In this document: positions 30,798-51,197 of the stretch, piece by piece
Position numbering within the stretch: position 1 is the stretch's first letter
How the letters are laid out: every line of letters starts with the position of its first letter
Assembly (NCBI RefSeq): GCF_000455205.1
Contig: NZ_AUWQ01000037.1
Span: forward strand, 1 to 62,557
Direction: 5' to 3'
Source: Mycobacterium sp. UM_CSW
Lineage (GTDB): Bacteria; Actinomycetota; Actinomycetes; Mycobacteriales; Mycobacteriaceae
Length of the DNA: 62,557 nt
The notes under the pieces: model-generated
What the model saw: only the letters and a program-made list of their open reading frames with translations
The model's database searches: none
Told to the model about the DNA's origin: nothing
Made by a program: the position numbers and the translations under genes

Positions 30798-30926
30798 CAG
30801 CGCAGTGCCTTGAGAAGATTGCGCAACTCAAAGCCCAAAGGAATGGCTGCGCGTCGACCAAGCGCCGCGCACGCCCGTCGGCAAGCCCGACTATCGGACC
30901 ATCAAAACGTTGATGAGGACGACCTA
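30798..30926 (+). pseudogene. fadD C-terminal remnant (copy A of duplicated module)
   Basis: Two plus-strand phases spell the last 40 residues of an acyl-CoA synthetase: LEKIAQLKAQR, then after a frameshift RVDQAPRTPVGKPDYRTIK. This matches the end of the intact FadD at 48263-49864 (YVRVDEIPRTPVGKPDYRAI). The catalytic-lysine segment remains but the adenylation core is gone. A GntR gene starts directly after it, as in the second copy. Confidence 0.8.
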
Positions 30927-31619
30927 ATGCCCAAACGATACGGTACGAAGGAAAAAGACCAGGCCGTCGAATACATTATCGACCGCCTGCTGACCGGCAA
31001 GTTGCGCACCGGTGATCGGGTCGACCGCAACGAGATCGCCAGAGATCTCGGGCTGAGCCGGGTCCCGGTGACCGAGGCCATCGGACAACTGGAACACGAC
31101 GGAATAGTAACGTCTCGCTATCACCGCGGTACTTTCGTCGAACGTTTCGACCCGGCCACGGTGCTTGAGCACCACGAGGTGTACGGCTTGCTCAGCGGCA
31201 TGGCATCGGCGCGTGCGGCGACCTACCCGACGCCGCGCCTGATCGACAAGCTTAACGAGCTGATCCGCGTTCTTCGGACGGCAACCGACTCGGAGATCTT
31301 CGAACAGACCACCTGGGAATATCGCCGCACAATCAACCACGAGTATGCCGGTCCGCGGCTGCAAGCTGCCATCCGCACGTCGCAGAGCTTCATTCCCAAG
31401 GCTTTCTGGGTGAACTTCGAGGACAACCAGAGATTCATGCTGCCTTCCTACGAGCGGGAGCACGCCGCGATCCTGCGTCATGATTCCACCGCTGCACGTG
31501 CCGCGTGCGAGGACCGTTCGATGACCACGGCGCGTGTGGTCGTCACCGAGCTGGTACGCCGCGGTGTGTTTGAAAGCACCGATGCTGTCGCCCCGGTCGA
31601 CGGCCTGTTGTCGCCATGA
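30927..31619 (+). CDS. GntR-family transcriptional regulator (copy A, intact)
   Basis: A 230-residue GntR regulator of the FadR/FCD type. It begins MPKRYGTKEKDQAVEYIIDR and has a winged helix-turn-helix (DRVDRNEIARDLGLSRVPVTEAIGQLEHDGI, split by family motifs). A C-terminal all-helical ligand domain with HEVYGLLSGMA, NHEY and EREHAAI supplies the metal/acyl ligand histidines. Such regulators usually repress catabolic operons and release on binding an acid or acyl-CoA. A 59-codon deleted twin lies at 49864. Start chosen by the shared N-terminus. Confidence 0.9.
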   Translation: MPKRYGTKEKDQAVEYIIDRLLTGKLRTGDRVDRNEIARDLGLSRVPVTEAIGQLEHDGIVTSRYHRGTFVERFDPATVLEHHEVYGLLSGMASARAATYPTPRLIDKLNELIRVLRTATDSEIFEQTTWEYRRTINHEYAGPRLQAAIRTSQSFIPKAFWVNFEDNQRFMLPSYEREHAAILRHDSTAARAACEDRSMTTARVVVTELVRRGVFESTDAVAPVDGLLSP

Positions 31620-31654
31620 GCACGACTTAGCCGAGGGAGCGGCGACGCGGCGCG

Positions 31655-31830
31655 CCCTTTGATTGGGGCACGAGGAATTTCGCCTGCTGGCACGCGACTT
31701 CATCGCCAGGAATGTCACCTCTTACTACGACTGGATCACGGACGGCATCTTCCCCGCGCAATCTGTACCGCCAACTCACCAGATCGGCGTCATGGGCTTT
31801 CGCGATTCCTGAGTACGGCGCGACCTCGGT
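31655..31830 (+). pseudogene. Acyl-CoA dehydrogenase N-terminal remnant (copy A)
   Basis: Across at least two frameshifts the plus strand reads HEEFRLLARDFIAR, then WITDGIFP, then GVMGFAIPEYG. This corresponds to the first 60 residues of the intact enzyme at 50040 (HEEFRVLVRDFIAKRV, GAMGFAIPEQYGG). Everything after is lost. It directly follows the intact GntR gene, mirroring the fadD-gntR-acad order of the second copy. Confidence 0.78.
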
Positions 31831-32025
31831 GACCAACTCGACGTCGAAGAAGTTTTCGGAGGGCGTGAGAAGGTCACTGTGCCAATATGATCGCCGCCCA
31901 AGTGCGCACGGACTCCGTCGAATTTCGGCGGCCTCGCCATTGCTCGCCGTATCGGGGCACAGTATTCAAGCCAGCCTTTCCGATGACGCGGTCGACAGGG
32001 CGATAGCGCCTCTCGGACTGAACCG

Positions 32026-33228
<1,203 letters not shown>

Positions 33229-33515
33229 TTAATTGGCGAACTATCTACCTATTTAAGCCGATGAAGGTGAACTCCGGTACCCCCGATGTTCAGATACCCA
33301 TCTCAGCGCCACAATCGGGTCGTCGGATGACGGCCTCGGGTCGGGTATCGCATCGGGAGGAGACGCCCGACCATCCTTAGAAACACGGCCAGCCCTGTTC
33401 AGACTGATAGCCGAACTAAGTAACTGCTTGCCGATTACAGCAATCGGAGCAAGAAATCGTGGGGAGGGGCAAACGACCTCGGCATGACATCCGCCATCGA
33501 TGTCGGGCGAATGGC

Positions 33516-34298
33516 TTAGAGCGCCGCGGAGAGCACATCGACGACTGCGACTCTGGAGTCTTCAATCATGTACTTCTGCACCCCGTCGAGGTGCCGCCGC
33601 CAATGCCGTTGAGCACCTTCTAAGTCGCCCTCGATGAGTAGACGCACCAATTTGTTGTGGCCGCGCTGATGCGTGCGGCAGGCTGGGACGTCATACCCCG
33701 CCGGGTGGTCGGCCAAGTGCGCTCGATTGTGGGCCTCGATGATGCTGTACAGCTGATCGGCCAGCACAGACAGTGTCGTATTGCCTGCCAGCGCCATTAT
33801 GGAGTGGTGGAAAACCACATCGAACTCGGCGTAAGCAGCGGGATCCTCGATGAGCCCGGCGCCGCGAGTCGAAAGTTCTTCGAGTTCTCTGATCTGGCGG
33901 CTGAGTCCTCTCCCAGAAGCAAGACCGATGGCGGATTCCTCGAGAGCCGCGCGTGCTTGGTAGACGTCGTCCAGTGTGGTTCCGCGTGATTGCAGCAAGG
34001 CGCCGGTGTAGCGGCCGGCGGCACCGGGGTCTGGGCGACGGGCACGTGCACCACCTCGGGCGCCACGCAGCACTTCGATGAGTTGTTCGGACTCGAGTAT
34101 CCGGAAGGCCTCGCGCAGGGTGGGGCGGGAAACGCCGAACTGCGTCATCAGAGTCGCCTCCGAGGGCAATGCGTCGCCCACGTCTATATCACCCATCACG
34201 ATCTGCCGTCGCAGTTTGGCGGCCACGAGCTCGCCGGCCTTTGGTACCTTCACCGCGTAAGCGTCTAATGGCACGCGTCGTACGTCCTCTCGTCTCAC
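33516..34298 (-). CDS. GntR-family regulator with FCD domain
   Basis: A 260-residue GntR/FadR-type repressor from GTG 34298. The winged helix-turn-helix is ALPSEATLMTQFGVSRPTLREAFRIL (read in two halves, residues 43-68). A helical FCD ligand domain contains FDVVFHHSIMALAGN and histidine-rich NRAHLADH. It lies beside the P450 (same strand) and opposite a decayed LLM oxidoreductase, and is a candidate regulator of this part of the cluster. The upstream region is AT-rich and contains a TCTAGA-centred palindrome near 34391. Confidence 0.9.
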   Translation of the reverse strand: MRREDVRRVPLDAYAVKVPKAGELVAAKLRRQIVMGDIDVGDALPSEATLMTQFGVSRPTLREAFRILESEQLIEVLRGARGGARARRPDPGAAGRYTGALLQSRGTTLDDVYQARAALEESAIGLASGRGLSRQIRELEELSTRGAGLIEDPAAYAEFDVVFHHSIMALAGNTTLSVLADQLYSIIEAHNRAHLADHPAGYDVPACRTHQRGHNKLVRLLIEGDLEGAQRHWRRHLDGVQKYMIEDSRVAVVDVLSAAL

Positions 34299-34411
34299 CC
34301 GCGGCGGGGGCTACTGGCGCTCTATGTGAGCTTGGCTGCCGAGACGCCGTGGCCCATAGCGTCAATAAAGAACAAAATACTAATTTATCTAGATTATAAC
34401 TCTAAGTCGAG

Positions 34412-34930
34412 AAGCTGGGCCTCGGCAGCGAAGACCCCCACGAGCTGGAGATCTGCGGCGCAGACCCACGCCGTCGCGGCGCTCGTCCCGACACTCACTT
34501 CACTGTGGTCCGCGCGCTGGTCGCGGGACAGGAAGACGACGTGGACGACGAGTTCCTGTCAATCCATGGCGCGACCATCCGTCCGGCGCCCGATCCGCCG
34601 GTGCCAATCCTCATCGGGGGCCGATCGGATGCGGTGCTTGAACGAGTAGGGCGTGCAGGCGACGGCTGGATCGCGATCTGGCTCACGGCTCAGCGTGCGG
34701 CGAGCTCACTGGGCGGCCATGGACCAGTACGCGGCCCATCATGGGCGCAATGAGGACGGGAATGGCTATCCACTGATGGTACGGAGTGGGGTGGGCGACT
34801 CGGTCGAGCAGCCGTTCTCGAGCACATGGTCCAGCTTGCGCAACGGATTGGCCGGCGCACATAGGAACGTTTGCGCAGGCGCTGATGACGGGGGCGGGCG
34901 GGCCGACCGAATGGAACAGGACCACGTGGG
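34412..34930 (+). pseudogene. LLM-class F420-dependent oxidoreductase remnant
   Basis: An open frame without start spells the C-terminal half of a luciferase-like F420 enzyme: GLGSEDPHELEICG, RRRGAR, PPVPILIGGRSDAVLERVGR, AGDGWIAIW. After a frameshift near 34690 the tail continues in another phase (MDQYAAHHGRNEDG, GYPLMVRSGVG). The N-terminal half is missing. These enzymes are common in mycobacterial catabolic clusters. Confidence 0.78.
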
Positions 34931-35042
34931 CGGCCTACCATAACGTGAATAAGTAGGACTACAATTTAACTGATTGCGTTTGGGGCGAGGCCCCAAGAGC
35001 CAATCAAACTGCTATCGCGCGCAGCCGGCGCGATGCGAGGAG

Positions 35043-36311
35043 ATGGTCGATGACCTCACCGGCTTCGAGGAGGCGGTTGCCTTGAAGAAACCCATGACAG
35101 GCGTTCGAGTCATCGAGGTCGCCGAGTACACGTTCGTGCCGTCGGCGGGCGCGGTGTTGGCCGACTGGGGTGCCGATGTCGTCAAGATCGAAAATCCCGT
35201 GACTGGTGATGCTCAGCGCGGCTTGGTCAGCGTTCTGAGCCGTTCCGCGTCCCGGCAAGGCGTCCCATTCGCGCCGATGATGGAAGCGCCAAATCGCGGC
35301 AAGCGCAGCATCGGACTGTCCCTGGCTCTTTCCGAGTCGCGTCCGGCGTTCGAGGAGCTCATTCGGCGCAGCGATGTCTTCCTTACCAGCTACCTGCCAC
35401 GAACACGCGCGAAACTGCGCATTGACGTCACCGACGTTCGGCGGGTGAATCCGGACATCATCTACGTCGCGGGAAGCGGCTTCGGCCATCACGGGCCCGA
35501 CCGCGACCGCGGGGGCTATGACGCGACGGCGTTCTGGGCTCGCGGCGGCAGTGCGCAAAGCGTCACGCAGATCGACGACGATTCGCCTGCGCCAATGCCA
35601 GCCGGTGCGTACGGTGACAACATCGGTGGCCTCACCATTGCCGGGGCCGTGGCCGCGGCCCTGTTTGGCCGGCAGAACACCGGCGAAACGTCAAGCATCG
35701 ACGTGTCACTGCTTTCCGTCGGAGCATGGGCGATGCAAGCCAACATCAATTTGGCAATGCTTTACGGATGTCCGTTACCGGTCATCGGTGGCCGCGCCCC
35801 CGCCCCAGGTAACCCGCTGACTGGGACATATCGGTGCAAGGACGGCCGGTTCATTCAGTTATCGATGTTGCAACCGACGCGCTACTGGCCGGAATTCTGT
35901 TCACTGTTCGGCTTGGCATCAGCTGCGACCGATCCTCGGTTCGCGTCGATGGAAGCCCTGGCGCAGCACAACGACGAGGCGATCCGTCTGGTCGCCGAGG
36001 CCATCGGCTCCCGTCCGTTCGAGGAATGCAACCGGCTGCTCGATCAATCCTCCGGGCCATGGGCGCCGTTGCAGGACGCTTGGGAGGTTGCCAACGATGA
36101 AGCACTCATCGCCAATGGGCGAATCGCCGATATTATCGACTCTCAAGGCCATCCTCAGAGGCTAGTAGCCAACCCGGCGCAATTCGACGGCGCACCAACG
36201 AGATTGAATAGGGCGCCATTGTTTGCCGAGCACACCGACGAAGTGCTGCGCGATCTGGGTGTCGATGAGACTGAACTACTGCAGTTGAAGTATGCAGGCG
36301 CCATTACCTGA
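35043..36311 (+). CDS. CaiB/BaiF CoA-transferase family protein
   Basis: About 422 residues of the class III CoA-transferase fold. The N-terminal strand is GVRVIEVAEYTFVPSAGAVLADWGADVVKIE, recognisable by GADVVKIE. The catalytic aspartate lies in GGYDATAFWARGG. GAYGDNIGGLTIAGAVAAAL and GETSSIDVSL follow in family order. It would move CoA between carboxylic acids, or epimerise or activate a branched acid. ATG 35043 follows GAGGAG; 35094 is an alternative. It stands alone between a decayed LLM gene and a convergent fadD. Confidence 0.9.
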   Translation: MVDDLTGFEEAVALKKPMTGVRVIEVAEYTFVPSAGAVLADWGADVVKIENPVTGDAQRGLVSVLSRSASRQGVPFAPMMEAPNRGKRSIGLSLALSESRPAFEELIRRSDVFLTSYLPRTRAKLRIDVTDVRRVNPDIIYVAGSGFGHHGPDRDRGGYDATAFWARGGSAQSVTQIDDDSPAPMPAGAYGDNIGGLTIAGAVAAALFGRQNTGETSSIDVSLLSVGAWAMQANINLAMLYGCPLPVIGGRAPAPGNPLTGTYRCKDGRFIQLSMLQPTRYWPEFCSLFGLASAATDPRFASMEALAQHNDEAIRLVAEAIGSRPFEECNRLLDQSSGPWAPLQDAWEVANDEALIANGRIADIIDSQGHPQRLVANPAQFDGAPTRLNRAPLFAEHTDEVLRDLGVDETELLQLKYAGAIT

Positions 36312-36588
36312 TTCGCTTTTCCTACCGTGCGCGCGGCGGCATCGATAGCTTCACCCAGACCAACCCGAAAGCGTATAGGCAGAAGCCGCACGACCTTCAG
36401 AACGCGTTAGCGGCCCCATAGCGGCGAATCCCAGCGCAAGCGGCAGGGCGCAAGCGCCAACCTTTCACGCCCCGAAGGCGCACACGACGTGCTCGCCGGA
36501 ATTTGGGCACCTCGATCGTCACGAAGTCACCCTGGCCGATGCCACGCTGAGCGAGTGAACGGGAATCCCGGCTGCCGCGGCGGTCCAG

Positions 36589-38109
36589 TTATTGCCAAAT
36601 CACCCGATGTCCCTTTGCACCGCAGGACGTTCGGCGCGCGAGTTCGCGAGATAGTTCGCCTCGCAACAGTTTCCCGTTCGGATTTCGCGGAAGTCGATCC
36701 ACGAAGATCCACTCGACGGGAACCTTGAACCCCGCCAGTTGCGCCCGGCAATGCACCCGCAGGTTTTCGGAATCCGGGGGCTCCTCAACGTCGACTGGTA
36801 CCACGAAGGCGACGATTGTCTCACCAAGCCGGCGGTCCGGTTTGCCGACGACTCCAGCCGACACGACGTCGGGATGCGTCTCTAGTATTTGTTCCACCTC
36901 GAGAGGAAAGACGTTCTCGCCGCCGCGGATGATCTTGTCTCCTCGACGTCCCACCAGGTAGACGAAGTCGTCGACCACCCGACCCAGGTCGCCGGTACGT
37001 TGCCACCCCTGCTCGTCAACGACGAACGAGTGGTCGCTACGCGCCCATATCTCTCCGATTCCGTTAGCATCCGGTTCGTTCAGCCGCAGTTCTACTCCCG
37101 GCGCAGGTCTTCCGACCGATGAGAGCAATCCCTCTTGTCCCGCCGCGGCTCGTCGATGGTCGTCGGCGTTGAGTACCGTCACGGGGCTGCCCTCGGTCTG
37201 GCCGAATAGGTTGATGAGGTCAACTGCGGGCATCACCTTCTGCATTCGCCGCACGGTGTCGGGGTGAATCGACGAGCCACCGTAGGCAAGGACTCTCAGG
37301 CTCGGCGGCGCGGGCACGCCTTCCTCCAAGAGCATCTCAATGACGGACGGTACCAGCGTCGTGTGCGTTGGAGCCGCAGATGCGAGATTACGCCAGAGAT
37401 CGACGGAGAGGGGCGGTATCAGGATGATGCTCGCGCCGTTGGCCAGCGCGGGCATGAGGTTGCCGAGGCCGGCAACGTGATGGAAAAGGGCCGCGGTCAC
37501 ATACCGTGCGTCGCCGTTGAAACCGCAGAGCTGGCCGAGTATTTCGGCGCGGCGTTCGAAGGGGCCCTCGGGCACCGGAACCGGTTTCGGCAAGCCCGTA
37601 GTCCCGGACGTGTGTAGCATGCAGGCGATGTCCTCAGGCCGACGTGCATCAGCACCCAAAGCAACATTGCCAGCGCCGATTTCATCGACGACGGCGATCC
37701 GCTTGCCGGTTGCCTTGGCCAACTCGGAAGCGAAATCACGGTACTGCGGTTCGGTGACCAAGACAGGGCCAGAGATATTTTTTAGGGACGCGAACACTTC
37801 TCTGTGAGTCACACGCGGCGCGAGAGGAGCCAGCGGACGACGAGTGAGCGCGCCTGCAATCAAGAGGGCCACCGAGTGCGGCTGACTGGTGAGTAGCGCA
37901 GGAACGCAGTCTCCGGCCTGGACACCGTGTACGTCGAGGTAGTCACTGGCACCTGCCGTTCTGGCGACGAGTTCGGCTCGCGTCCACGATTCGATGCGCT
38001 CATGATTCATCGAGACGATCGCATCTCGATCGGAATCGCTGAGCAGGTGGTGCAGAATGCGTTGTGACCACGTGGCGAATTGGCGTGGTGGTGCGGGGGC
38101 GGGTTCCAT
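36589..38109 (-). CDS. Acyl-CoA synthetase (FadD)
   Basis: A 506-residue acyl-adenylating enzyme. The P-loop is MLHTSGTTGLPKPVPVPEG, the A5 motif is FGQTEGSPV (variant of YGxTE), the A7 motif is GWQRTGDLGRVV, the hinge is GRRGDKIIRGGENVFP, and the catalytic Lys is in PRNPNGKLLR. It lies 8 nt downstream of the racemase-like CoA-transferase, so the two probably act on the same acid: CoA ligation, then epimerisation. The 3' side has about 280 bp with no recognised gene. Confidence 0.92.
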   Translation of the reverse strand: MEPAPAPPRQFATWSQRILHHLLSDSDRDAIVSMNHERIESWTRAELVARTAGASDYLDVHGVQAGDCVPALLTSQPHSVALLIAGALTRRPLAPLAPRVTHREVFASLKNISGPVLVTEPQYRDFASELAKATGKRIAVVDEIGAGNVALGADARRPEDIACMLHTSGTTGLPKPVPVPEGPFERRAEILGQLCGFNGDARYVTAALFHHVAGLGNLMPALANGASIILIPPLSVDLWRNLASAAPTHTTLVPSVIEMLLEEGVPAPPSLRVLAYGGSSIHPDTVRRMQKVMPAVDLINLFGQTEGSPVTVLNADDHRRAAAGQEGLLSSVGRPAPGVELRLNEPDANGIGEIWARSDHSFVVDEQGWQRTGDLGRVVDDFVYLVGRRGDKIIRGGENVFPLEVEQILETHPDVVSAGVVGKPDRRLGETIVAFVVPVDVEEPPDSENLRVHCRAQLAGFKVPVEWIFVDRLPRNPNGKLLRGELSRELARRTSCGAKGHRVIWQ

Positions 38110-38117
38110 CGCGTGCC

Positions 38118-39941: not shown

Positions 39942-40381
39942 TGGTCTCCTCCGGTGGGTTTCGATGTCTCAACGAACGTGTTGCGGACTTCTGCCACCAG
40001 ATCGCCCTTTTCATCACGAAATTCGGTGAGCAGAGTCGTGAAGGTCAGGGTGCCGCCGCGTTTACCTTCCTTAGTATGACTACCTTCGATGCGTTGCTGG
40101 CCCGTCAGCTGCATCCCGATGCGGGGTGGTCCCTTGGGAAACGCGAACTCTTGACTAGCGTGCAACACGCGCCGCATGTCGCGATCCTTTGGCCATGCGT
40201 TGTTGTCGGGGCCCTGCCAAAGGATCGCGGTCATCAGAAACGTGGGCGGCGTTACTCCGCCCGGCGAATAGTGCGCGGGATGCTTCGAGCCGGTCGCCTT
40301 TGCGAACTCGCGCGACTTGCCGAGTTCGATTGGGATGTCAAATGGCTCGGCCACGTTACTCCTTTCGACGTCGTGACTCAT
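39938..40381 (-). CDS. FAS1-like / MaoC N-terminal dehydratase subunit
   Basis: A 147-residue hotdog protein of the FAS1-like dehydratase type. It has the segment IELGKSREFAKATG, a HPAHYSPGGVTPPTFLMT cavity strand and HASQEFAFPKGP. It lacks the D-x4-H catalytic motif, as in the substrate-binding partners of heterodimeric hydratases. It overlaps both neighbours by 4 nt. Together with the MaoC subunit downstream it probably forms one enoyl-CoA hydratase. Confidence 0.9.
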   Translation of the reverse strand: MSHDVERSNVAEPFDIPIELGKSREFAKATGSKHPAHYSPGGVTPPTFLMTAILWQGPDNNAWPKDRDMRRVLHASQEFAFPKGPPRIGMQLTGQQRIEGSHTKEGKRGGTLTFTTLLTEFRDEKGDLVAEVRNTFVETSKPTGGDH

Positions 40382-41466
40382 GGAACGATGACTGCGTGCA
40401 GGGGAGGTGCTTCGCCGTGGGCCATGTCGCCCAGAAGATCGGCCACAGAGCCAGCGTCGAGTGCGCAGGTCACTCGCGGGATGGCCTCGAACCGATCGTC
40501 GGTAGCCAGTAGTTCGAGCGCGCGCGCGTAGGCGGTGCCGTCGACGCCGCGTGCCCCGAGCAACGTCAACTCCTTCAGCACGAACCGGTCGGGGTTGAAG
40601 TCCTTGAGGGCGTGCAACCCGCGGGTTCCGGCGACCACCACGGTTCCGCCAGGCCTCGCCAGATCGATGGCTTGAAGGAAAGCGGCGGGCGCGGCAGCAG
40701 TGACGTCGACGACGACATCGGCCAGACCGCCCGTCCTTTCCTTGAGCAACGCCCTTGCGTCTGTAGTGGTGACGTCGACGGTCTCGGTTGCACCCAGAGT
40801 GCGCCCGAGTTCCATGCGCTCGCGGTCGCGGCTCCCCGCCCCCGTCAGCAGAGTGAACGCGGCACCGGCGATGGACACGACGGCAACCGAACTCAGCCCA
40901 CGGAGGCCCGGCCCGAGCACGGCCACTACGTCACCTTGTTGAACCTGCGGCAGCACGTGGGCCCACCGCACGCCGGCGCCCAGCGGGTTGAAGAGGGTGG
41001 CATAGGCCGCATCAAGTCCAGGCGGCACCCTGTGTACGAGGGCATCGCATCCCAGCAAGAGGTGCGTTGCAAAGCCGCCCCACAGCCCGGAGCCCCATTC
41101 GATGGAGGTGTTCCCATAGGACCGCGCGAGTCCGTAGGTTCGACAGAGTGGATATGCGCCTCGACGGCAGGCATCGCACTGTTCGCAGCGTTGGAACACC
41201 TCGAGCGCCACGACTTCACCCTGCTCGAGGCCGCGAGCCGATAGGAATTCGTCGGTGGCTCGTTCGACGACGCCGACGACCTCGTGGCCGGGTATCAAAG
41301 GAAGGCTGCCGGGCATTGCGCCGGTGAACAATTCGTGATCGCTTCCGCAGAGTCCGCATGCCAACACACGCAAGATGGCTTCGCCGGCCGCGGGGGCGGG
41401 AATCTCGATGTGCCGCTCGATCAGGTGGTTGGGAGTCTCAAGTACGAGAGCGGTCGCTTTCATCAC
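40378..41466 (-). CDS. Zinc-dependent alcohol dehydrogenase (MDR family)
   Basis: A 362-residue medium-chain dehydrogenase. The catalytic zinc ligands are in CGLCGSDHE and PGHEVVG. The structural zinc cysteines are in CEQCDACRRGAYPLC. The cofactor-binding turn is VLGPGLRGLSSV, a variant of GxGxxG. It would oxidise an alcohol, perhaps the product of one of the P450s, to an aldehyde or ketone. It overlaps the thioesterase upstream and the dehydratase downstream by 4 nt each. Confidence 0.92.
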   Translation of the reverse strand: MMKATALVLETPNHLIERHIEIPAPAAGEAILRVLACGLCGSDHELFTGAMPGSLPLIPGHEVVGVVERATDEFLSARGLEQGEVVALEVFQRCEQCDACRRGAYPLCRTYGLARSYGNTSIEWGSGLWGGFATHLLLGCDALVHRVPPGLDAAYATLFNPLGAGVRWAHVLPQVQQGDVVAVLGPGLRGLSSVAVVSIAGAAFTLLTGAGSRDRERMELGRTLGATETVDVTTTDARALLKERTGGLADVVVDVTAAAPAAFLQAIDLARPGGTVVVAGTRGLHALKDFNPDRFVLKELTLLGARGVDGTAYARALELLATDDRFEAIPRVTCALDAGSVADLLGDMAHGEAPPLHAVIVP

Positions 41467-41894
41467 GTGGCGATCCGGTAGATGACAGTGCCCGAAGCCA
41501 CTGGCCGACCGCTTTCGCTAACGATCGAGACCTCGGTGAAGTTGAGTTCCCTGGCTCGGCGCACGCAACGTGCGGTCGCGATCACCGCCTCACCGCGGGC
41601 GGCGCCGGTGAAGTTGATCGTGACGCTCACGGTCGCCCCCCGAGTGCCCTTCTCATAGTCGTGGCCATTCCAGGCGGCGGCACTGCCGGCGACGTCGGCG
41701 AGGGTGGCGATCGCCCCACCGTGCGCAGTGCCACCGCTGTTGTCGATCGCCTCGCTGAAGGGCAACCTCACCACAGCGACATCTGGCTCCGACCAATCGA
41801 TGAGTTCGAGGCCGACGACCTTGTTGAACGGCACCTTGGTGAACATGAACCGCAGCGACTTTCCATGGCGCTCGCGCTGCTCATCTTCGCTCAC
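41463..41894 (-). CDS. PaaI-family hotdog thioesterase
   Basis: A 143-residue hotdog protein from GTG 41894. The family signature is NSGGTAHGGAIATLADVAGSAAA: the conserved (N/D)-x-x-G-x-x-HGG helix of PaaI-like acyl-CoA thioesterases. It would release CoA from stalled or dead-end thioesters. It is the first gene of a tightly overlapped operon with the alcohol dehydrogenase and the dehydratase pair. Confidence 0.9.
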   Translation of the reverse strand: MSEDEQRERHGKSLRFMFTKVPFNKVVGLELIDWSEPDVAVVRLPFSEAIDNSGGTAHGGAIATLADVAGSAAAWNGHDYEKGTRGATVSVTINFTGAARGEAVIATARCVRRARELNFTEVSIVSESGRPVASGTVIYRIAT

Positions 41895-42071
41895 CGCGAC
41901 GCCCTAATAAATGAATACATATGGAGCTTCCTTTTCCTCTGCTTAACCTCTGTCAACAGTAAGTTGGTTCTTGAGCTTGGCCGCTTTGCGAATGAACTTG
42001 GATTCAAATGATATGGGCATCGAATAGTGCGTGATCGTGCGTGTCGGCGCAACGCGCGGATTCCGGAGGCA

Positions 42072-43220: not shown

Positions 43221-43253
43221 CGCACATTCCTCCCTCGTTCGAAACCTGTCGCC

Positions 43254-44117
43254 TCAAGACTTATCGGCGAACTCTTCGTCGGCGAACCACGGGTAGAACG
43301 CCGGCAGATCGTCTGGGACCGCCGTCGTGAAGTGCGGCTTGCGCTTCTCCTTGAACGCGGCGATTCCCTCTTTCGTGTCAGCCGACCCGCCGAGGCTCAA
43401 AAATGCCTGTGACTCTAAGCGATTGGCACTCATGGGGTGTGGTGAGCCAAGCTGTCGCCACAGCATTTGTCGAGTCAACGCGACGGATAGTGGGGACGCC
43501 TGTTCGGCGATCTGAGCGGCGATCTCACGCGCCCGCGGCAATACCTGTTCGGCAGGCAACAGTTCACTGACCAGACCCCGGGCCGCCGCCTCCTGCGCGT
43601 CGAAGACGCGACCCGTGACACACCATTCGATGGCCGTGGCGATGCCCACGATGCGCGGAAGGAACCATGTCGCGCATGATTCCGGCACGATGCCACGGCG
43701 CGTGAATGGCAGTCCGAAGCGGGCGGAATCAGCTGCGATGCGCACATCCATCGGCAGAATCATCGTGACGCCCACCCCGACGGCAGTTCCGTTGACCGCC
43801 GCTATGACGGGTTTGGTGCAGCTGAATAGGCGCAGCGCCAACACTCCACCGACATCGCGTTTGGTTCCGCGAAGAGGCTTGAACCCGGGTGCGTTCACGT
43901 CGAGGCCGCCACCACCAGCGGCCAGGTCGGTCCCATAGGAAAAGCTGTCGCCGCTACCGGTCACGATGATGGCACGTATCGACGGGTCGGAGTCCGCAGC
44001 TTCGAATGCTTCGATCAGATTGTCGAGCAAGCTGTAGCTCACTGCGTTTCGCGATTGCGGCCGGTTCAAGGTGAGGGTCAGCACTCCCGCTTCCGCATCG
44101 GACAACAGTTCAGGCAT
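43254..44117 (-). CDS. Enoyl-CoA hydratase/isomerase
   Basis: A 287-residue crotonase-fold protein. The oxyanion loops are SFSYGTDLAAGG and AAVNGTAVGVGVTM, and a glutamate sits in RRGIVPESCATW at the usual acid position. The first catalytic Glu position is not obvious, so it may be an isomerase or hydrolase rather than a standard hydratase. It lies upstream of the thiolase with a 33 nt gap. A fragment at 57713-57862 resembles its residues 170-190. Confidence 0.9.
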   Translation of the reverse strand: MPELLSDAEAGVLTLTLNRPQSRNAVSYSLLDNLIEAFEAADSDPSIRAIIVTGSGDSFSYGTDLAAGGGGLDVNAPGFKPLRGTKRDVGGVLALRLFSCTKPVIAAVNGTAVGVGVTMILPMDVRIAADSARFGLPFTRRGIVPESCATWFLPRIVGIATAIEWCVTGRVFDAQEAAARGLVSELLPAEQVLPRAREIAAQIAEQASPLSVALTRQMLWRQLGSPHPMSANRLESQAFLSLGGSADTKEGIAAFKEKRKPHFTTAVPDDLPAFYPWFADEEFADKS

Positions 44118-44444
44118 CGCTTCGTTGCTCTTCCGGTAATCACATTTGCGCGTTGAGGTCGTTCGCCCGCACTCGGTGGCCGCCGCTTCAAGCCCAGCTC
44201 GTCCACCTGGCAGACGTCCGCCTGCTGCCGTGGCGTTTCGTGCTCGGCCTTCGTCGGCGTTACCTCCTGTTCGTACCGACCATCTATACGGTACTATTAT
44301 TTAGTTGTTTATACCAGCGCCGCGTCCGGCGTCGGAAGCGATCCGGCTCGTAGCGCGTGACGGCCAGGGCGATCTGGGGACTTGAACATATAGTTAGATG
44401 AGATGACTTAATAGGGATCAGCCAGGATAGGTGAGCTCGACGTC
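44118..44444. other. Divergent intergenic region
   Basis: About 330 bp between the enoyl-CoA hydratase and an SDR gene. It contains no gene that I can support. Two AT-rich blocks are visible: near 44288-44315 (TACTATTATTTAG), likely the promoter for the minus-strand hydratase/thiolase genes, and 44388-44418 (ATATAGTTAG...), likely for the plus-strand SDR. Confidence 0.5.
44388..44396 (+). promoter_or_regulatory. ATATAGTTA element upstream of SDR
   Basis: ATATAGTTA ends 49 nt before the GTG at 44445. The related ATATAGTTT lies 45 nt before the thioesterase start at 52614. ATATAGTTA occurs again (minus strand) at 61263-61271, about 51 nt from the starts on either side. Similar distance suggests a shared promoter or operator element. 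Confidence 0.35.
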
Positions 44445-45143
44445 GTGGATATGCGTCTGGACGGAAAGGTGGCCCTCGTCACCGGTGCGTCGCGGGGTAT
44501 CGGCCTCGCGATTGCCAACTGCTACGCCGTGAACGGGGCGAAGGTCATGCTGGCCAGCCGAAAAGCCGATGGCCTGGCCGCCGCAGCGGCCACGCTCGAC
44601 GGTCAGGTTGCGGTTAAGGTGGCTAACACACGGAACCTCGATGACATCGAAGGCCTGGTTGATGCCGTACTTGACCGATGGGGACGGCTAGATGTGCTCG
44701 TCAACAACGCCGCCACCTGTCCCTACGTAGGACCGGTCGTAGACGTGGAGCCGGGGCAGCGGGACCGCAATTTCGAAGTCAATCTGCGGGGTTCTTTGTT
44801 CCTGATCCAAAAGGCTTGGCGCGCGTGGATGGTCTCCAACGGCGGAAGCATCATCAACATCTCCTCCGTCGGCGCCTTCCGAACGCATAGGACCATGGGC
44901 TTCTATGACATCGGCAAAGCCGCTCTGGCTCAGCTGACCAGGCACCTGGCGGGTGAGCTCGGACCCCGAGTGCGGATCAATGCGATAGTGCCAGGTCTGG
45001 TGGAGACACGGATGGCCGAGTCGATCATCAAGACCAGGGGCGTCGACATCGCCGCTCGTATTCCGCTGCAGCGCAACGGTATTCCTGAAGACATCGCGGG
45101 AGCCGCGTTGTTTCCAGCAGGCGCTGCCTGGTCCTGGATGACG
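44445..45143 (+). pseudogene. Short-chain dehydrogenase truncated at its 3' end
   Basis: From GTG 44445 the frame encodes an SDR: VTGASRGIGLA (cofactor motif), LVNNAAT, INISSV, and the catalytic YDIGK (Y-x-x-x-K). Homology runs to FPAGAAWSWMT at 45143 and stops there, short of the usual TG-x-x-x-x-VDGG end. The frame continues as a non-homologous 328-codon extension antisense to the next SDR, ending at 46127. The last 15-20 residues of the SDR fold, which help bind the cofactor and form the dimer, are therefore missing. Confidence 0.75.
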
Positions 45144-45908
45144 CTACCGCGGCGCCATGCGAAGGGCGCCATCGAGCCGGATCGTCTCGCCGTTGACGTA
45201 GGGGTTCTCGAGCAATTCGCACGCCATGCGGCCGAACTCCTCCGGTCTTCCCAGCCGTCGAGGGTGAGGGATGTCGGCTGCGAGGGCCGAACGCACTTCG
45301 TCACTGAGTCGTCCGAGCATCGCGGTATCGAAGACCCCTGGCGCGATTGTGTTCACCCGGATGCCCTTCGACGCCAAATCGCGCGCCAAGACGAGTGTCA
45401 TTCCGCGCACACCGGCTTTCGCGGCCGAATAGGCCGTCTGACCAATCTGACCCTCGAACGCAGCGGCCGACGACGTCATCACCACGGCGCCCCGGTCGCC
45501 ATCGGTCGTCGGTGGATTGCGCGAGATTCGTTCAGCCGCGAGCCGGACGACGTTGTAGCTGCCGATGAGATTCACTCGGACGACTTCTTCGAAACTGTTC
45601 AACGGGTTTGCGTTTCCGTCACGGTCGAGTACACGCAACCGATCGCCGCCCCGTCCCGCGCAATGTACGACCGCCCGCAGCGGTCCTGCATCAACCGCGG
45701 TGTCGAGCGCCTGACTCAGACTCTCGGTATCAGTGATATCCGCCGCGACAAAGGTTGCGCCGATGTGCTCGGCGGCAGCAGAGCCGTCCGACGTCGGGAG
45801 GTCGGCGATAACCACGCGGGCGCCACGCCGCGTCAGCGCAGACGCACTCGCGAATCCCAGCCCAGACGCTCCTCCGGTCACCAGGGCAGCCGCGTCATTC
45901 AAATCCAC
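45144..45908 (-). CDS. HSD10-like short-chain dehydrogenase
   Basis: A 254-residue classical SDR resembling 3-hydroxyacyl-CoA dehydrogenase type II. The cofactor motif is VTGGASGLGFA, with D-I-T-D-x-x-S near 60, HCAGRGG, the catalytic TSSAAAF...AYSAAKAG, and the end IRLDGALRMAPR. GTG 45908 follows AAGGAG and is preferred over upstream in-frame starts. It would oxidise a 3-hydroxyacyl-CoA. A paralog lies at 57947-58726. Its stop abuts the broken end of the convergent SDR. Confidence 0.9.
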   Translation of the reverse strand: MDLNDAAALVTGGASGLGFASASALTRRGARVVIADLPTSDGSAAAEHIGATFVAADITDTESLSQALDTAVDAGPLRAVVHCAGRGGDRLRVLDRDGNANPLNSFEEVVRVNLIGSYNVVRLAAERISRNPPTTDGDRGAVVMTSSAAAFEGQIGQTAYSAAKAGVRGMTLVLARDLASKGIRVNTIAPGVFDTAMLGRLSDEVRSALAADIPHPRRLGRPEEFGRMACELLENPYVNGETIRLDGALRMAPR

Positions 45909-46134
45909 CTCGGACTCCTTTACACATCGAGACAATGGATCCATATCAACGTCAAGCATCTTCTAGCCCGCGTCGACGGTACGAAGTCGGATCGGATAGT
46001 AGCAGGTAGACGAGGCGTGGTGTTAGCGGACAGTAATCTATGGTTGAATCCAACTGCTGGCGGCCGCCGAGGGTGGATCCCCCGGCATGAGTTGACGGGA
46101 GAGGCTCCTGAACACGCCCACGCTTGATATTTCG

Positions 46135-47262
46135 TTGCCTACCTTTCGTGCGGCGTTGGGGGGATGGCTGTCAGCCAACGCCGAAAGCCTCGACGAGTTC
46201 CGCCATCACCGCGCCGAGGCCGCCGAAGAGCGCTGGGCCCGCGACCTCCGATTCATTCGGGTGCTGTATGCCGCGGGGTGGAACCGACACGGTTGGCCCG
46301 CGGAGTACGGCGGAGTCGGCGGCCCCGCGGTTCTGCGCAACGTGCTCTACGAGGAACTGGAAAACGCCGGATACCGCGTTCCCGACTGCGTGATCCAACT
46401 CGAATTGCAGGGCGAAGCCTTCATGAAGTTCGCCCCCGAGATCGCGGCGGCCCGCATCCCGGCTGCGCTACGCGGCGACGAGATGTGGACGCAGGGCTTC
46501 TCGGAGCCGGAGGCGGGCAGTGACCTCGCTTCGCTTCGTTGCAAGGCGGTGCAGGATGGCGACGAATGGGTGATCACCGGCCAAAAGACTTGGTCGAGTT
46601 ACGCACTTTCGGCGCGGTGGATGGGGGTGCTCACGCGGACTGGGACACCCGAGTCGCGCCACCGCGGGATCACCATGTTCTTGGTCGATCTCGAGTCCCC
46701 TGGCGTCGAGGTGCGGCCCTTGCGGCTCGCCAACGGAGTTGATGAGTGTGCCGACGTCTTCTTCGACAACGTCCGCGTGTCAGCAGACAACCGCATCGGA
46801 GAGGTCGGCGGCGGCTGGGACGTCGCCATGTACTTGCTTCAATTCGAGAGGGCCAATTATGGATGGCTGCGCCAAGCTCATCTGGCCCGACGGCTCCGTG
46901 AACTCGTCAGCAATATCGACGCTCCGGACCGCCATACGGCGAACGTGTTGGGCAACTGTTGGTTGGCCAACCTCGCGTTGCGCCTTCGCTGCGGTGACAC
47001 CGTACGTCGACTCTTCGCCGGGCAGAGAATCGGACCGGAGGCATCGATCGACAAAGTCCTCATCGCGCAGGCAGAGCAGCCTTTGAACGACGCCTTCCGC
47101 GATCTGTTTCCTGCGCAATTCCTCTTCGATCCGGGCGAGGAGTCCGAAGTGTGGCGATCGGAGTGGTACTACAGTCGCGCGGCATCGATCTACGGGGGCG
47201 CAGGTGAGATTCAGCGGGGCATCATCGCCGACCGCTTACTGGGACTTCCCAAAGAGGTATGA
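46135..47262 (+). CDS. Acyl-CoA dehydrogenase, first subunit of a pair
   Basis: About 375 residues. Flavin/substrate loop: TQGFSEPEAGSDLASLRCKA. Substrate-side segment: WVITGQKTWSSYA. C-terminal signature: YGGAGEIQRGIIADRLLG. The Glu of YEGT is replaced by Gly, so the base must lie elsewhere. The start is uncertain: TTG 46135 or a non-ATG codon near 46108 behind GGGAGAGG. The next gene overlaps by 4 nt and encodes a shorter partner, as in heterotetrameric FadE pairs (FadE26/27, FadE28/29). Confidence 0.88.
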   Translation: MPTFRAALGGWLSANAESLDEFRHHRAEAAEERWARDLRFIRVLYAAGWNRHGWPAEYGGVGGPAVLRNVLYEELENAGYRVPDCVIQLELQGEAFMKFAPEIAAARIPAALRGDEMWTQGFSEPEAGSDLASLRCKAVQDGDEWVITGQKTWSSYALSARWMGVLTRTGTPESRHRGITMFLVDLESPGVEVRPLRLANGVDECADVFFDNVRVSADNRIGEVGGGWDVAMYLLQFERANYGWLRQAHLARRLRELVSNIDAPDRHTANVLGNCWLANLALRLRCGDTVRRLFAGQRIGPEASIDKVLIAQAEQPLNDAFRDLFPAQFLFDPGEESEVWRSEWYYSRAASIYGGAGEIQRGIIADRLLGLPKEV

Positions 47263-48266
47263 GGATGCGATCGACTCTGATGAGCACGGCCGATATCGAG
47301 GCGTTGCGAGACGGGATCCGGGCGTCAGCTCGACACAGCGGCGACGCGGCTGCGGTGGCCCGTGACGTTGGCTTTGAAGATGTGCTTAACGAAGACAGGG
47401 CTGTTGCGGCCGTCTTCTTCGAAGAGTTCGGTCGACTTGGTTTGGACCATCGCCTGAATGATGCAATTGCCGCCAACGCATTGGGTTGTTCCGGGCCGGA
47501 TACGCCGTCGTTGGGTTATCCCCTTCCTGGAATCGACGTCCCGAATCGTCGCACCGGAGGTGGATTAGGCGTTGACGTCCTCGTGCGCGGTGTGGACGGT
47601 GATTCCGTCAGCTCCATCCTCCTACTGGCCGGCGAGGAGGCCGTGTTGGTACCGACGTCGGGTCTGCAATGCTCGCCTGCAAAGGGATTCGACATCGTCG
47701 ATGGCTGGACGAGGTGGCGGGGCAGTGTGTCGGCGGATGATTCGGACGTTCTGTCGACCGACGGCGCAAGACATGTCCGCGCCGTGGTGCGTGCCGCGCT
47801 TGCCAGCGAACTCAACGGGATTGCTTCCAAGGTTAACGAGCTGGCCGTCGACCACGTGACCAGCAGGCACCAATTCGGCCAGGCGCTTGGCAGCTTTCAA
47901 AGCGTCCGGCACCGGCTGGCTGAGACACACGTCGCCATTCATGCCGCTATGCCCGTGATCGAGTTGGCCTGGCAGGCTACCGCCTGTGGGGATGCCGGTT
48001 CGGCGGAACTGGCGACGGCAGCCAAAGCCCTCGCCGGACGTGCCTTCGAGATTGCAGCCAAGAACGCCCATCAGGTATGCGGTGGAATGGGCTTGAGCTG
48101 GGAGCACCCGCTCCACCGGTGGGTCCGTCGAGGAACTGTCCTCAATTCGTTGATCGGATCACCGGACGAATTGGCGGCCGATTTGGGTGGCATGCTCGCC
48201 CGCGGCGCAGCCTTGCCGGTCCCGAATGCGCTGTGCGACGACGAGAATCAGTCCACCCCTGCATGA
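47259..48266 (+). CDS. Acyl-CoA dehydrogenase, second subunit of a pair
   Basis: A 335-residue acyl-CoA dehydrogenase-like protein with a weak middle domain and without the standard TE-x-x-x-GSD flavin loop. It retains the C-terminal helices (SRHQFGQALGSFQSVRHRLAE, QVCGGMGLSWEHPLHRWVRR). Such shortened chains are the beta subunits of mycobacterial alpha2beta2 acyl-CoA dehydrogenases. The ATGA overlap with the upstream gene and a second ATGA overlap with fadD downstream place it in a tight operon. The regular family fold is otherwise intact. Confidence 0.85.
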   Translation: MRMRSTLMSTADIEALRDGIRASARHSGDAAAVARDVGFEDVLNEDRAVAAVFFEEFGRLGLDHRLNDAIAANALGCSGPDTPSLGYPLPGIDVPNRRTGGGLGVDVLVRGVDGDSVSSILLLAGEEAVLVPTSGLQCSPAKGFDIVDGWTRWRGSVSADDSDVLSTDGARHVRAVVRAALASELNGIASKVNELAVDHVTSRHQFGQALGSFQSVRHRLAETHVAIHAAMPVIELAWQATACGDAGSAELATAAKALAGRAFEIAAKNAHQVCGGMGLSWEHPLHRWVRRGTVLNSLIGSPDELAADLGGMLARGAALPVPNALCDDENQSTPA

Positions 48267-49864
48267 CACGGCAACCCGGGGTCGAGGTCGACCCACGACA
48301 CGACGGCGTCACTCCGCTTGGCGAGAACGTCGATAGTCCATCGCACCATTATGTGACAAGCCTGCGGCATTTTGCGGTCAAGCGTCCACAGGATCTCGCC
48401 ATCGTTACGCCAGCCCGGTCGGTCACGTTCGCCGAACTCTCGGAGAGGGCGAACTCTCTTGCGGGCTACCTGCATTCGCGCGGCGTGGCCGCAGGCACGC
48501 CCGTCGCGCTGATGTCGGCGAACAGTGCCGAACTGATCGAAGCGTTTTACGCCGCGCTCGTCTTGGGTGCGCCGCCAGCCAACGTCAACCCTCGTTACCA
48601 CGCACACGAGGTGCGATACGTGCTGGAAAACTGTGCGGCGGGCGCCGTGCTCTTCGACCCGACAAGCGCGACGGTGGTGGCCGAGGCGGTATCCGCTATG
48701 GAGGAACCCCCGTTTCCCCTCGAGTTCGGCAGCAGTAGGTGGCGCGCTGCGATCAGCTCGACCACGGACTACGTGCGCCCGCAGTCCGTCGACGATCGAC
48801 TCCTGATCTATACCGGAGGGACGACCGGTCTTCCTCGAGCCGTGGAATGGCGTGTCGTTGACCACTTTCGAATGATTTGGCAGATGGTCAAACCCACTGA
48901 ACCGCCTCCGACGCCCGAGGCGTTGATCGACTCGGGTCGCAGGGCTCCGACGGCGAGTCCGTGTTCCCCGATTCTGCACGGCGTCGGGTTGTCGCTCACG
49001 CTGAACACTCTCAACGGCGGTGGCACGGTGGTCGTCTCGGACCGTCTGACATTCGACGCTGCAGACACGTTCGACTTGGTCCGCCGATATGACGTGGCTG
49101 TGCTTGGCATCGTGGGAGACGCATTCGCGCGGCCCATGTTGGATGAACTCGAGACCGGCAGGTGGAACGGGAAACTGCCCTCGCTGCGGGCGATCTCATC
49201 GGCGGGCGCGTCGTGGACCTCCTCAATTCGTGACCGGATGGCGAATCTGCTGCCGGGCGTGAAGATGGTCAGCAATTTCGGCTCGACCGAGGCGCTGGTG
49301 GCCCGAGACATCAGCAGCGACCATTCGATAGATCCAGGCGATGGGCTAGTGGTCATCGGTGAAAACGACAGGCCGGCGCAGCCCGGCGAGGTGGGGGTGG
49401 TCGCGACAGCAGGTTACCTGCCGCTGGGTTATCTGGGCGACCCGCAGAAGACGGCCGAAACGTTTCGGACGATCAACGGCCGCCGTTACGCAGTGACCGG
49501 GGATGAGGCTCGAGTTGAGGCGGACGGGCGGATTACACTGCTCGGCCGCGGCAGTGCCGTGATCAACACGGGCGGCGAGAAGGTGTGGCCCGACGAGGTC
49601 GAAGCTGTGCTGCGATCCGTCCCAGGCGTACTAGATGCGGTGGTCGTAGGTCGACCGGACGAACGCTGGGGTCAGCGTGTTGCGGCCGTTCTCCGGATCG
49701 CCGGTACGGCCGAAATCAGCGACCAACGCCTCAGCCAGGGGTGTCGTGAAAGGCTTGCGCCATACAAGTGTCCCCGACAATATGTGCGCGTCGACGAGAT
49801 TCCGCGCACCCCGGTCGGGAAGCCCGACTACCGCGCCATCGATTCTCTACTTGAGGAATCTTGA
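48263..49864 (+). CDS. Acyl-CoA synthetase (FadD, copy B, intact)
   Basis: A 533-residue adenylating enzyme from ATG 48263, which overlaps the previous stop. Motifs are LIYTGGTTGLPRAVEW (P-loop variant), NFGSTEALV (A5), YAVTGDEARVEADG (A7), GRGSAVINTGGEKVWP (hinge) and RTPVGKPDYR (catalytic Lys). Its end is nearly identical in pattern to the fadD remnant at 30798-30926. It is followed without a gap by a deleted GntR gene. The substrate acid is unknown, but the operon suggests the ligase feeds the two acyl-CoA dehydrogenase subunits upstream. Confidence 0.9.
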   Translation: MTRQPGVEVDPRHDGVTPLGENVDSPSHHYVTSLRHFAVKRPQDLAIVTPARSVTFAELSERANSLAGYLHSRGVAAGTPVALMSANSAELIEAFYAALVLGAPPANVNPRYHAHEVRYVLENCAAGAVLFDPTSATVVAEAVSAMEEPPFPLEFGSSRWRAAISSTTDYVRPQSVDDRLLIYTGGTTGLPRAVEWRVVDHFRMIWQMVKPTEPPPTPEALIDSGRRAPTASPCSPILHGVGLSLTLNTLNGGGTVVVSDRLTFDAADTFDLVRRYDVAVLGIVGDAFARPMLDELETGRWNGKLPSLRAISSAGASWTSSIRDRMANLLPGVKMVSNFGSTEALVARDISSDHSIDPGDGLVVIGENDRPAQPGEVGVVATAGYLPLGYLGDPQKTAETFRTINGRRYAVTGDEARVEADGRITLLGRGSAVINTGGEKVWPDEVEAVLRSVPGVLDAVVVGRPDERWGQRVAAVLRIAGTAEISDQRLSQGCRERLAPYKCPRQYVRVDEIPRTPVGKPDYRAIDSLLEES

Positions 49865-50043
49865 TGCCGAAACGGTATGGCACCAAGGAAAAGGAGCAAG
49901 AGTCGGCCGCGCGCGAGGAGCGCTCGACCATGATGGGGCGCGTCGCGGTGACCGAATTGGTCAATCGTGGGGGCTCCGAGACCTACCGAGGGCGTCACGC
50001 CCGGTACCGGGATCTTGACACAGAACTGGTTGGAGGTTATTGA
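49864..50043 (+). pseudogene. GntR regulator with in-frame internal deletion (copy B)
   Basis: A 59-codon frame begins MPKRYGTKEKEQ, like the intact GntR at 30927 (MPKRYGTKEKDQ). It then jumps to the equivalent of that protein's last quarter: AAREERSTMMGRVAVTELV against AACEDRSMTTARVVVTELV. About 170 residues, including the whole DNA-binding domain and most of the ligand domain, are missing. The frame is kept, and it overlaps the fadD stop (TGATG) and the next start (TTGA). It may still be translated, but it cannot bind DNA. Confidence 0.85.
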
Positions 50044-51197
50044 GCGTGCGGCGAACACTATTCGACCAAGAGCACGAAGAATTCCGTGTGCTCGTCCGAG
50101 ACTTCATCGCGAAACGGGTAGTTCCTCATTTCGACGAGTGGGTTGACGAGGGAATCGTTCCGCGCCAGTTGTATCGAGAACTCGGTGCGATTGGTGCGAT
50201 GGGCTTCGCCATTCCAGAGCAATACGGAGGTGGGGGAGTCGACGATTATCGCTACAACGCCGTTTTACAGGAAGAGGCGGCGCGCGCGAACGTGACTTTG
50301 GGAACGATGCGAACGCACCTGGACGTCGTCTTGCCATACCTGCTGAAATACGCCAACGACGAGCAGCGTGAGCGATGGTTCCCGGGGCTGGTAAGCGGTG
50401 ACCTCTTTTTGGCCATCGCCATGACCGAGCCGGGCACGGGATCGGACCTCGCCGGAGTCAAAACCACTGCCAAACGTGACGGTAGCGACTTCATTGTCAA
50501 TGGTGCCAAGACGTTCATCACAGGTGCCGCGCATGCCGACCTCATAATCGTGCTTGCAAGGACCGGCGAGCCCATCGACGGCAACCGTCGCTCTGGTTTG
50601 AGTCTGCTCGTCGTCGAGGACGGTGTTGCGGGTTTCACCAAGGGCCGCCGCCTGCCCAAGCTCGGACTTCGGGTGCAGGACACGGTTGAACTGTCGTTCG
50701 AAGATGTGCGGGTCCCGGCCATCAACCTGCTCGGTGAAGTCGATCAAGCCTTTTCCTACCTGGGACATAACCTCGCCCAGGAGCGCCTGGCCATCGCCGT
50801 CGGATCGGTGGCGCAGAGCCGCGCCGCCATGGAGATGACGATCGACTACGTCAAGAACCGGAACCTCTTCGGCACAACCGTTTCGGCCATGCAGAACACC
50901 AAGTTCGAGATTGCGGCGGTTGCCACTGAGATTGAGGCCGCGCAAGCGATGTGCGACAACGGGGTCAGAGATCTCGTCGACGGCGAGCTCAGCGGAGCGG
51001 ACGCGGCGAAGATCAAGCTCTTCTGCACGGAGATGCAAGCCCGGACCGTCGATCGCTGCCTACAACTGCATGGCGGCTACGGCTACATCCTCGAGTACCC
51101 CATCTCGCGGCTCTACGCCGATGCCCGCGTGAGCCGTATCTATGGCGGAACAAGCGAAGTGTTGAAGTCAATCATCAGTAAGTCGTTGGGACTATGA
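50040..51197 (+). CDS. Acyl-CoA dehydrogenase (copy B, intact)
   Basis: A 385-residue dehydrogenase from TTG 50040 (GTG 50046 is possible) behind GGAGG. Flavin loop: FLAIAMTEPGTGSDLAGVKT. Signature: LHGGYGYILEYPISRLYADA, then YGGTSEVLKS. Gly replaces the YEGT glutamate, as in isovaleryl/long-chain types where the base lies in an earlier helix. Its first 60 residues match the remnant at 31655-31830. It follows the deleted GntR frame with overlap and precedes an enoyl-CoA hydratase (36 nt), giving consecutive beta-oxidation steps. Confidence 0.92.
   Translation: MSVRRTLFDQEHEEFRVLVRDFIAKRVVPHFDEWVDEGIVPRQLYRELGAIGAMGFAIPEQYGGGGVDDYRYNAVLQEEAARANVTLGTMRTHLDVVLPYLLKYANDEQRERWFPGLVSGDLFLAIAMTEPGTGSDLAGVKTTAKRDGSDFIVNGAKTFITGAAHADLIIVLARTGEPIDGNRRSGLSLLVVEDGVAGFTKGRRLPKLGLRVQDTVELSFEDVRVPAINLLGEVDQAFSYLGHNLAQERLAIAVGSVAQSRAAMEMTIDYVKNRNLFGTTVSAMQNTKFEIAAVATEIEAAQAMCDNGVRDLVDGELSGADAAKIKLFCTEMQARTVDRCLQLHGGYGYILEYPISRLYADARVSRIYGGTSEVLKSIISKSLGL

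What the first reader, a model, noticed from the sequence alone, without database searches (positions are those of the whole stretch)
30798..51197. Two copies of a fadD-gntR-acad module have decayed in complementary ways
Copy A (30798-31830) is a fadD C-terminal scrap, an intact GntR gene and an acyl-CoA dehydrogenase N-terminal scrap. Copy B (48263-51197) is an intact fadD, a GntR gene with a large in-frame deletion and an intact dehydrogenase. Shared landmarks are RTPVGKPDYR at the fadD end, MPKRYGTKEK at the GntR start and HEEFR...GFAIPE in the dehydrogenase. Between them exactly one working set remains, so the surviving regulator may now control the other copy from 17 kb away.
Basis: partly seen in the sequence, partly recalled or inferred. 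Interest (0 to 1): 0.72.

Follow-up and report, generated by a model that had tools for sequence, protein, structure and literature searches.

The report
Displaced regulator in a catabolic island
In a Mycobacterium, one copy of a fat-breakdown gene set lost its control gene while a second, mostly ruined copy kept that control gene, and a rare DNA motif in front of both suggests that the kept gene may now run the other copy from a distance.

Summary
Copy A is a frameshifted fadD end, an intact 230-aa GntR gene (30927-31619) and an acyl-CoA dehydrogenase start fragment. Copy B is an intact fadD, a 59-codon gntR remnant (large in-frame deletion) and an intact dehydrogenase. Two other mycobacteria (M. 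pinniadriaticum and unnamed G083) carry one complete module each. A and B are not sister copies: A-B identity is 65.2%, against 71.2% and 72.9% of each to M. pinniadriaticum. Both lie in an integrase island at tRNA-Val.

gntR(A) shows coding constraint, unlike its flanking fragments taken together. The decamer TTGGATTCAA occurs 6 times in the 6.39-Mb genome; 3 of 6 are here, upstream of the gene before gntR(A), of a thioesterase-ADH unit, and between an SDR and the copy-B operon. Spacing agrees at two orthologous promoters (54/55 and 103/105 bp). The model's top fold match is the VanR-group repressor Atu1419, whose 10-mer also has G3/C8.

So control of copy B by GntR(A) has sequence support, but binding is untested and other GntR proteins are rivals. 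"Exactly one working set" is too strong: a 61% GntR paralogue lies elsewhere in the genome.

The parts
22406..22478 (+). tRNA-Val (CAC); its 3' end is the attachment site at the left edge of the island
   Evidence: ARAGORN; a 48-bp exact copy of 22431-22478 lies on contig C38 of the same genome; matches of 8 of 10 relatives to this DNA stop at 22478-22480
22575..23675 (-). tyrosine integrase of the island
   Evidence: PF00589 E 8.2e-17, PF14659 E 1.4e-7
29485..29494 (.). candidate operator TTGGATTCAA, 59 bp before the likely ATG (29554) of the acyl-CoA dehydrogenase that precedes gntR(A)
   Evidence: binding not tested
29554..30726 (+). intact acyl-CoA dehydrogenase directly upstream of copy A, same strand (longest ORF starts 29302)
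   Evidence: Pfam; start chosen from a GGAGG before an ATG
30771..30926 (+). copy A: decayed 3' end of fadD
   Evidence: alignment to G018 and B
30927..31619 (+). copy A: intact gntR, 230 aa, FCD/VanR-like fold
31666..31812 (+). copy A: decayed 5' end of an acyl-CoA dehydrogenase gene
41470..41894 (-). thioesterase (orthologue in G083), first gene of a unit with the alcohol dehydrogenase 40378-41466
   Evidence: translation and match to G083; end approximate
41998..42007 (.). candidate operator TTGGATTCAA, 103 bp before the thioesterase start (105 bp in G083)
45144..45959 (-). SDR divergent from the copy-B operon
   Evidence: ORF; SDR assignment from sequence, no family search run on it
46044..46053 (.). 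candidate operator TTGAATCCAA between the SDR and the copy-B operon
   Evidence: site centre 46048.5, centre of 45960-46134 is 46047
46108..47262 (+). first acyl-CoA dehydrogenase of the copy-B operon; homology to G018 runs to a CTG at 46108, first ATG/GTG/TTG start is 46135
47259..48266 (+). second acyl-CoA dehydrogenase of the copy-B operon
48263..49864 (+). copy B: intact fadD
49864..50043 (+). copy B: gntR remnant of 59 codons, overlapping its neighbours at both ends
50040..51197 (+). copy B: intact acyl-CoA dehydrogenase
51234..52013 (+). enoyl-CoA hydratase, last gene of the copy-B run
33516..34298 (-). second GntR gene of the island with an FCD domain: rival owner of the operators
   Evidence: PF07729 E 3.6e-19, PF00392 E 4.8e-17

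Best explanation
The window holds the left part of a horizontally acquired catabolic island. Two related but not sister fadD-gntR-acad modules met in it. Copy B kept the enzymes and lost its regulator by an in-frame internal deletion, leaving a short reading frame that still bridges fadD and acad. Copy A was cut down to the regulator with fragments of its neighbours, now behind another acyl-CoA dehydrogenase gene. GntR(A), a VanR-like FCD regulator, probably binds TTGNATNCAA 10-mers in front of its own new unit, of a thioesterase-ADH unit and of the SDR/copy-B divergon, so one displaced regulator serves the whole cluster and is kept for that. Shown here: anatomy, relatives, island, unequal constraint, motif enrichment and spacing. 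Inferred: binding, repression and release by a pathway acyl-CoA or similar ligand, and the order of events.
Against: No binding data. With one mismatch allowed the window still has only 3 sites, mean 1.51, and 19 of 100 shuffles reach 3. The G083 module promoter has no site within one mismatch, nor has the G018 ADH promoter. G018 has 1 of 9 sites on the module contig (binomial 0.049, and rank 2 not 1). For the acad fragment alone the constraint contrast is p 0.055, and the copy-B fadD control failed to align. The motif was picked after looking at these promoters, and start codons 29554, 41894 and 46108 were chosen with the sites known. B and G018 promoters align at 69% overall, so the site is not an island of conservation. 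The island has another FCD GntR (33516-34298), and a 39% relative of it lies in the C38 stretch.
Confidence: 0.55

Rival explanations
1. The TTGNATNCAA sites belong to another regulator, most likely the FCD GntR at 33516-34298; GntR(A) is a bystander on its way to decay.
For: That protein has a clear FCD domain, lies in the same island, and FadR-subfamily regulators bind such palindromes (PMC4494728, passages).
Against: tblastn found no relative of it in 9 of the 10 loci tried, which include the module stretches of G018 and G083 where the sites also occur; the one hit (39%) is in G000's own C38 stretch. Regulator checks there were partial: 20 proteins against Pfam, one LuxR-type found, and a GntR profile on ORFs of those loci.
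Confidence: 0.2
2. Ordinary genomic erosion: xenologous modules gathered in an island decay at random, and one intact regulator and one intact enzyme set is what chance left; copy B runs unregulated.
For: Islands often carry fragments (general knowledge); only one genome shows this state, so no repeated pattern can be tested.
Against: gntR(A) keeps coding constraint between decayed flanks and sits behind a promoter with the same rare decamer as copy B.
Confidence: 0.2
3. A recent duplication of one module inside this genome, followed by complementary loss.
For: Same gene order, orientation and overlapping landmarks.
Against: A and B are less alike than either is to G018; 5 of 28 informative sites join them. 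The A fragments drift faster, which lowers A-B and A-G018 alike but not the B-G018 excess.
Confidence: 0.05

Closest known systems
Atu1419 of Agrobacterium fabrum (VanR group, FCD GntR; PMC7797058, abstract and passages seen)
   Same: Best fold match of the GntR(A) model; represses several units of one acyl-CoA-type catabolic cluster including its own; 10-bp palindrome with G3 and C8
   Different: About 21% identity; site ATGTATACAT against TTGNATNCAA; its cluster is not reported there as two decayed modules; effector of GntR(A) unknown
[quoted passage not shown] PMC12042122, passages seen)
   Different: 17% identity; 13-bp site ATTGTCAGACAAT; regulator next to its target
Single complete acad-acad-fadD-gntR-acad modules of M. 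pinniadriaticum CVI_P4 and G083
   Same: Gene order and 62-84% protein identity of the parts
   Different: One intact module each; regulator in place; G083 promoter of the module lacks the site
Mycobacterial genomic islands with lipid genes, such as MmGI-1 of M. massiliense (PMC4263727, search listing only)
   Same: Accessory island related to lipid metabolism
   Different: Not compared by sequence here

Membership tests
GntR family, FCD (FadR/VanR-type) regulator: GntR(A) | N-terminal GntR winged helix-turn-helix | tested here: met
   PF00392 48.7 bits, cut-off 27
GntR family, FCD (FadR/VanR-type) regulator: GntR(A) | Pfam FCD domain PF07729 recognised by sequence | tested here: not met
   No FCD hit at E <= 0.001
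GntR family, FCD (FadR/VanR-type) regulator: GntR(A) | all-helical FCD fold behind the DNA-binding domain | tested here: met
VanR group within FCD | six rather than seven C-terminal helices | tested here: inconclusive
   Model has six long helices and one of five residues in 76-211; top rows tie between groups
VanR group within FCD | short palindromic operator with G at position 3 read by Arg45 | tested here: inconclusive
   Candidate TTGNATNCAA has G3/C8; residue 45 of GntR(A) is Arg, nearly invariant among 23 rows; binding not tested
Integrase-type genomic island at a tRNA | tRNA flank with integrase | tested here: met
Integrase-type genomic island at a tRNA | direct repeat of the tRNA end at the other edge | tested here: met
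   48 bp identical on C38; that the two contigs join was not shown
Integrase-type genomic island at a tRNA | absent at the same site in close relatives | tested here: met
   In G017 the match ends at 22478 and other genes follow; those genes are on C38 in this genome
Paralogous pair made by within-genome duplication (A and B) | copies more alike than either is to other species | tested here: not met
   65.2% against 71.2% and 72.9% over 351 columns

The most novel reading that the evidence does not exclude
A regulon rewired by complementary loss between two xenologous modules on one genomic island: the regulator survives only in the module that lost its enzymes, has come under a promoter that carries its own operator, and now controls the orphaned enzyme module 15 kb away through a rare decamer, while the regulator remnant is kept only as a translational bridge between fadD and acad.
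Probability: 0.4. Interest if true: 0.62.

Novelty: new variant of a known kind. Interest (0 to 1): 0.48.

Why it matters
If true, it is a caught-in-the-act case of how a local, operon-embedded regulator becomes a trans-acting one: not by duplication and divergence but by opposite losses in two imported modules. It also gives a concrete, testable operator (TTGNATNCAA) for a GntR clade of mycobacterial acyl-CoA catabolic clusters whose regulon I did not find named in the papers searched, with three candidate target units in one island and more in G083.

Tried and rejected
Recent duplication: rejected. Plasmid origin of the module: 218 of 218 plasmid records matching GntR(A) and 1362 of 1362 matching the first dehydrogenase are below 60% identity, so no plasmid source seen. 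Module in other genera: in 401 genomes of the family, 31 genera, 4 had a match at E <= 1e-86, all in this genus; G018 and G083 were not among the listed matches of that sample. The genome-contig scan gave 4 loci, one of them the 78% relative. Operator from the paralogous C16-type genes: their promoters share a TGAGAAACTT block and not TTGNATNCAA, and TGAGAAACT is absent from the window, so this gave no common site. Simple palindromes shared by the three module promoters: none found by the first scan. Terminator between 30727 and 30926: none; 2 terminator-like sites elsewhere in 29300-32100 against 1.8 in shuffles, no promoter-like site. Promoter-zone count (all 3 sites in 5.1% of the island) rests on a hand-made gene list with starts picked after the sites were known, so it is not used as evidence. 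The other three TTGGATTCAA places in this genome (C36, C95, C129) were fetched but their genes were not resolved; likewise G083 sites at 135732, 151260 and 177101. GC content does not mark a clean island edge: it is already low from 17.5 kb and high again from 57.5 kb.

Full report
What is there. Copy A (30771-31812) is a decayed fadD end, an intact 230-aa gntR and a decayed acad start; copy B (48263-51197) is an intact fadD, a 59-codon gntR remnant and an intact acad. Copy B is part of a run acad-acad-fadD-(gntR)-acad-ech. The remnant has lost the residues matching 13-191 of GntR(A), in frame, and its tail is out of frame; it overlaps fadD by TGATG and acad by TTGA, so it could still couple their translation (coupling inferred).

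Relatives. The window is one whole contig (C37) of a 6.39-Mb genome in 186 contigs. It has one intact module: gntR 78%, acad 84%, fadD 74%, the two first dehydrogenases 82% and 64%, ech 78%. G083 has a further intact module, gntR 68% and acad 77-78%. Among 297 genomes of the genus only these and the window's own have a GntR match at E <= 1e-90. So the module is rare. Nearest relatives by other genes, such as G017, have no match at that level.

A and B are not sisters. In 351 columns where A, B, G018 and G083 all have letters, A-B 229, A-G018 250, B-G018 256, A-G083 231, B-G083 229 and G018-G083 239 are identical; informative sites 5 (A with B), 11 (A with G018), 12 (A with G083). The numbers are small and A's fragments drift, but a recent duplication does not fit. 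The paralogue on C16 (61%) belongs to a group of 19 rows set apart from A, G018 and G083 with support 93/100, just under the usual mark for the first value.

Island. An integrase gene stands beside tRNA-Val; 8 of 10 relatives match the DNA left of it up to 22478-22480 and no further, G010 stops earlier and G083 shows no match there. In G017 other genes follow the tRNA, and these lie on contig C38 here. C38 has an exact 48-bp copy of the tRNA end, about 14.6 kb from those genes. The right end of the window is best matched in G083, G305 and G018, weakly in the nearer relatives. Both copies therefore lie in acquired DNA reaching from 22479 past the contig end.

Is gntR(A) kept? Against G018 its differences fall 27/23/99 on codon positions 1/2/3 (199 each), with no gap; the fadD fragment 16/12/19 and the acad fragment 11/12/23, both with gaps. 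Fisher p: pooled fragments 0.0013, fadD fragment 0.002, acad fragment 0.055. The acad of B, an intact control, has 7/7/25 and does not differ significantly from the A fragment (p 0.27); the fadD control of B gave no aligned columns. dN 0.139 and dS 1.48, the latter near saturation.

Candidate operator. TTGNATNCAA occurs 3 times in the window, all as TTGGATTCAA in one or the other orientation, against 0.38 expected, 0 of 100 shuffles; none lies left of the island. Allowing one mismatch adds no site and is not significant (19 of 100 shuffles). Genome-wide TTGGATTCAA: G000 6, G018 3, G083 1, G017 1, G001 1; reversed control 1, 0, 1, 0, 1. Three of G000's six are in this island, and G083's only one is in its module cluster. 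TTGNATNCAA: G000 18 (3 here), G018 9 (1 on the module contig), G083 7 (6 on the module contig, 4 in 19.9 kb); reversed control 10, 8, 6. Among 48 palindromes of equal composition it ranks first in the G000 island and in 50 kb of G083, second in G018.

Positions. Site to start: copy B 54 bp to a CTG at 46108, where homology with the G018 protein begins (81 bp to the first usual start, TTG 46135); G018 55 bp; dehydrogenase before gntR(A) 59 bp; thioesterase 103 bp here and 105 bp in G083. The 46044 site centres within 2 bp of the middle of the SDR/operon gap if 46135 is the start, 15 bp off if 46108 is. Single sites in such divergons tend to the middle (PMC4494728, section 15). No terminator-like site lies between the dehydrogenase and gntR(A), so the regulator may be read from the 29485 promoter and control itself.

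Rivals. The FCD GntR at 33516-34298 could own the sites. Its relatives were absent from 9 of 10 loci tried, among them the module stretches of G018 and G083; other regulator classes were only spot-checked. The module promoter of G083 and the ADH promoter of G018 lack the site.

Verdict. The complementary decay is real and its reading as displaced control is plausible with independent sequence support; it is not a duplication story. Chemistry: dehydrogenases, ligase, hydratase, thioesterase and CoA-transferases point to acyl-CoA catabolism; the substrate is unknown. That paired dehydrogenases of this kind act on steroid side chains in mycobacteria is recalled, not tested.

Noticed in passing
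window 22431-22478 and G000:C38:51904 (L086): 48-bp attachment-site repeat; between the repeat on C38 and the core genes shared with G017 lie another 14.6 kb that may be a second insertion.
   Followed up: partly
L084 3944-3986 (G018:C22): A second, 93% copy of the tRNA-Val end 2.3 kb beyond the tRNA in M. pinniadriaticum, suggesting use of the same site there.
   Followed up: no
window 46108: The copy-B operon seems to begin with a CTG where G018 has ATG.
   Followed up: partly
promoters of C16-type gntR genes (L002, L010-L020, L030): Most carry a shared block like TGAGAAACTT some 60-70 bp before gntR, a possible autoregulatory site of that clade.
   Followed up: no
L070 4387-5601 and 8623-10905 (G083:C88): A protein with SAVED and HNH domains beside a Mu-type transposase-like gene near the catabolic cluster.
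   Followed up: no
G000:C38, L092 3464-4198: A further FCD-type GntR, 39% identical to the 33516 protein, on the contig with the other att copy.
   Followed up: no
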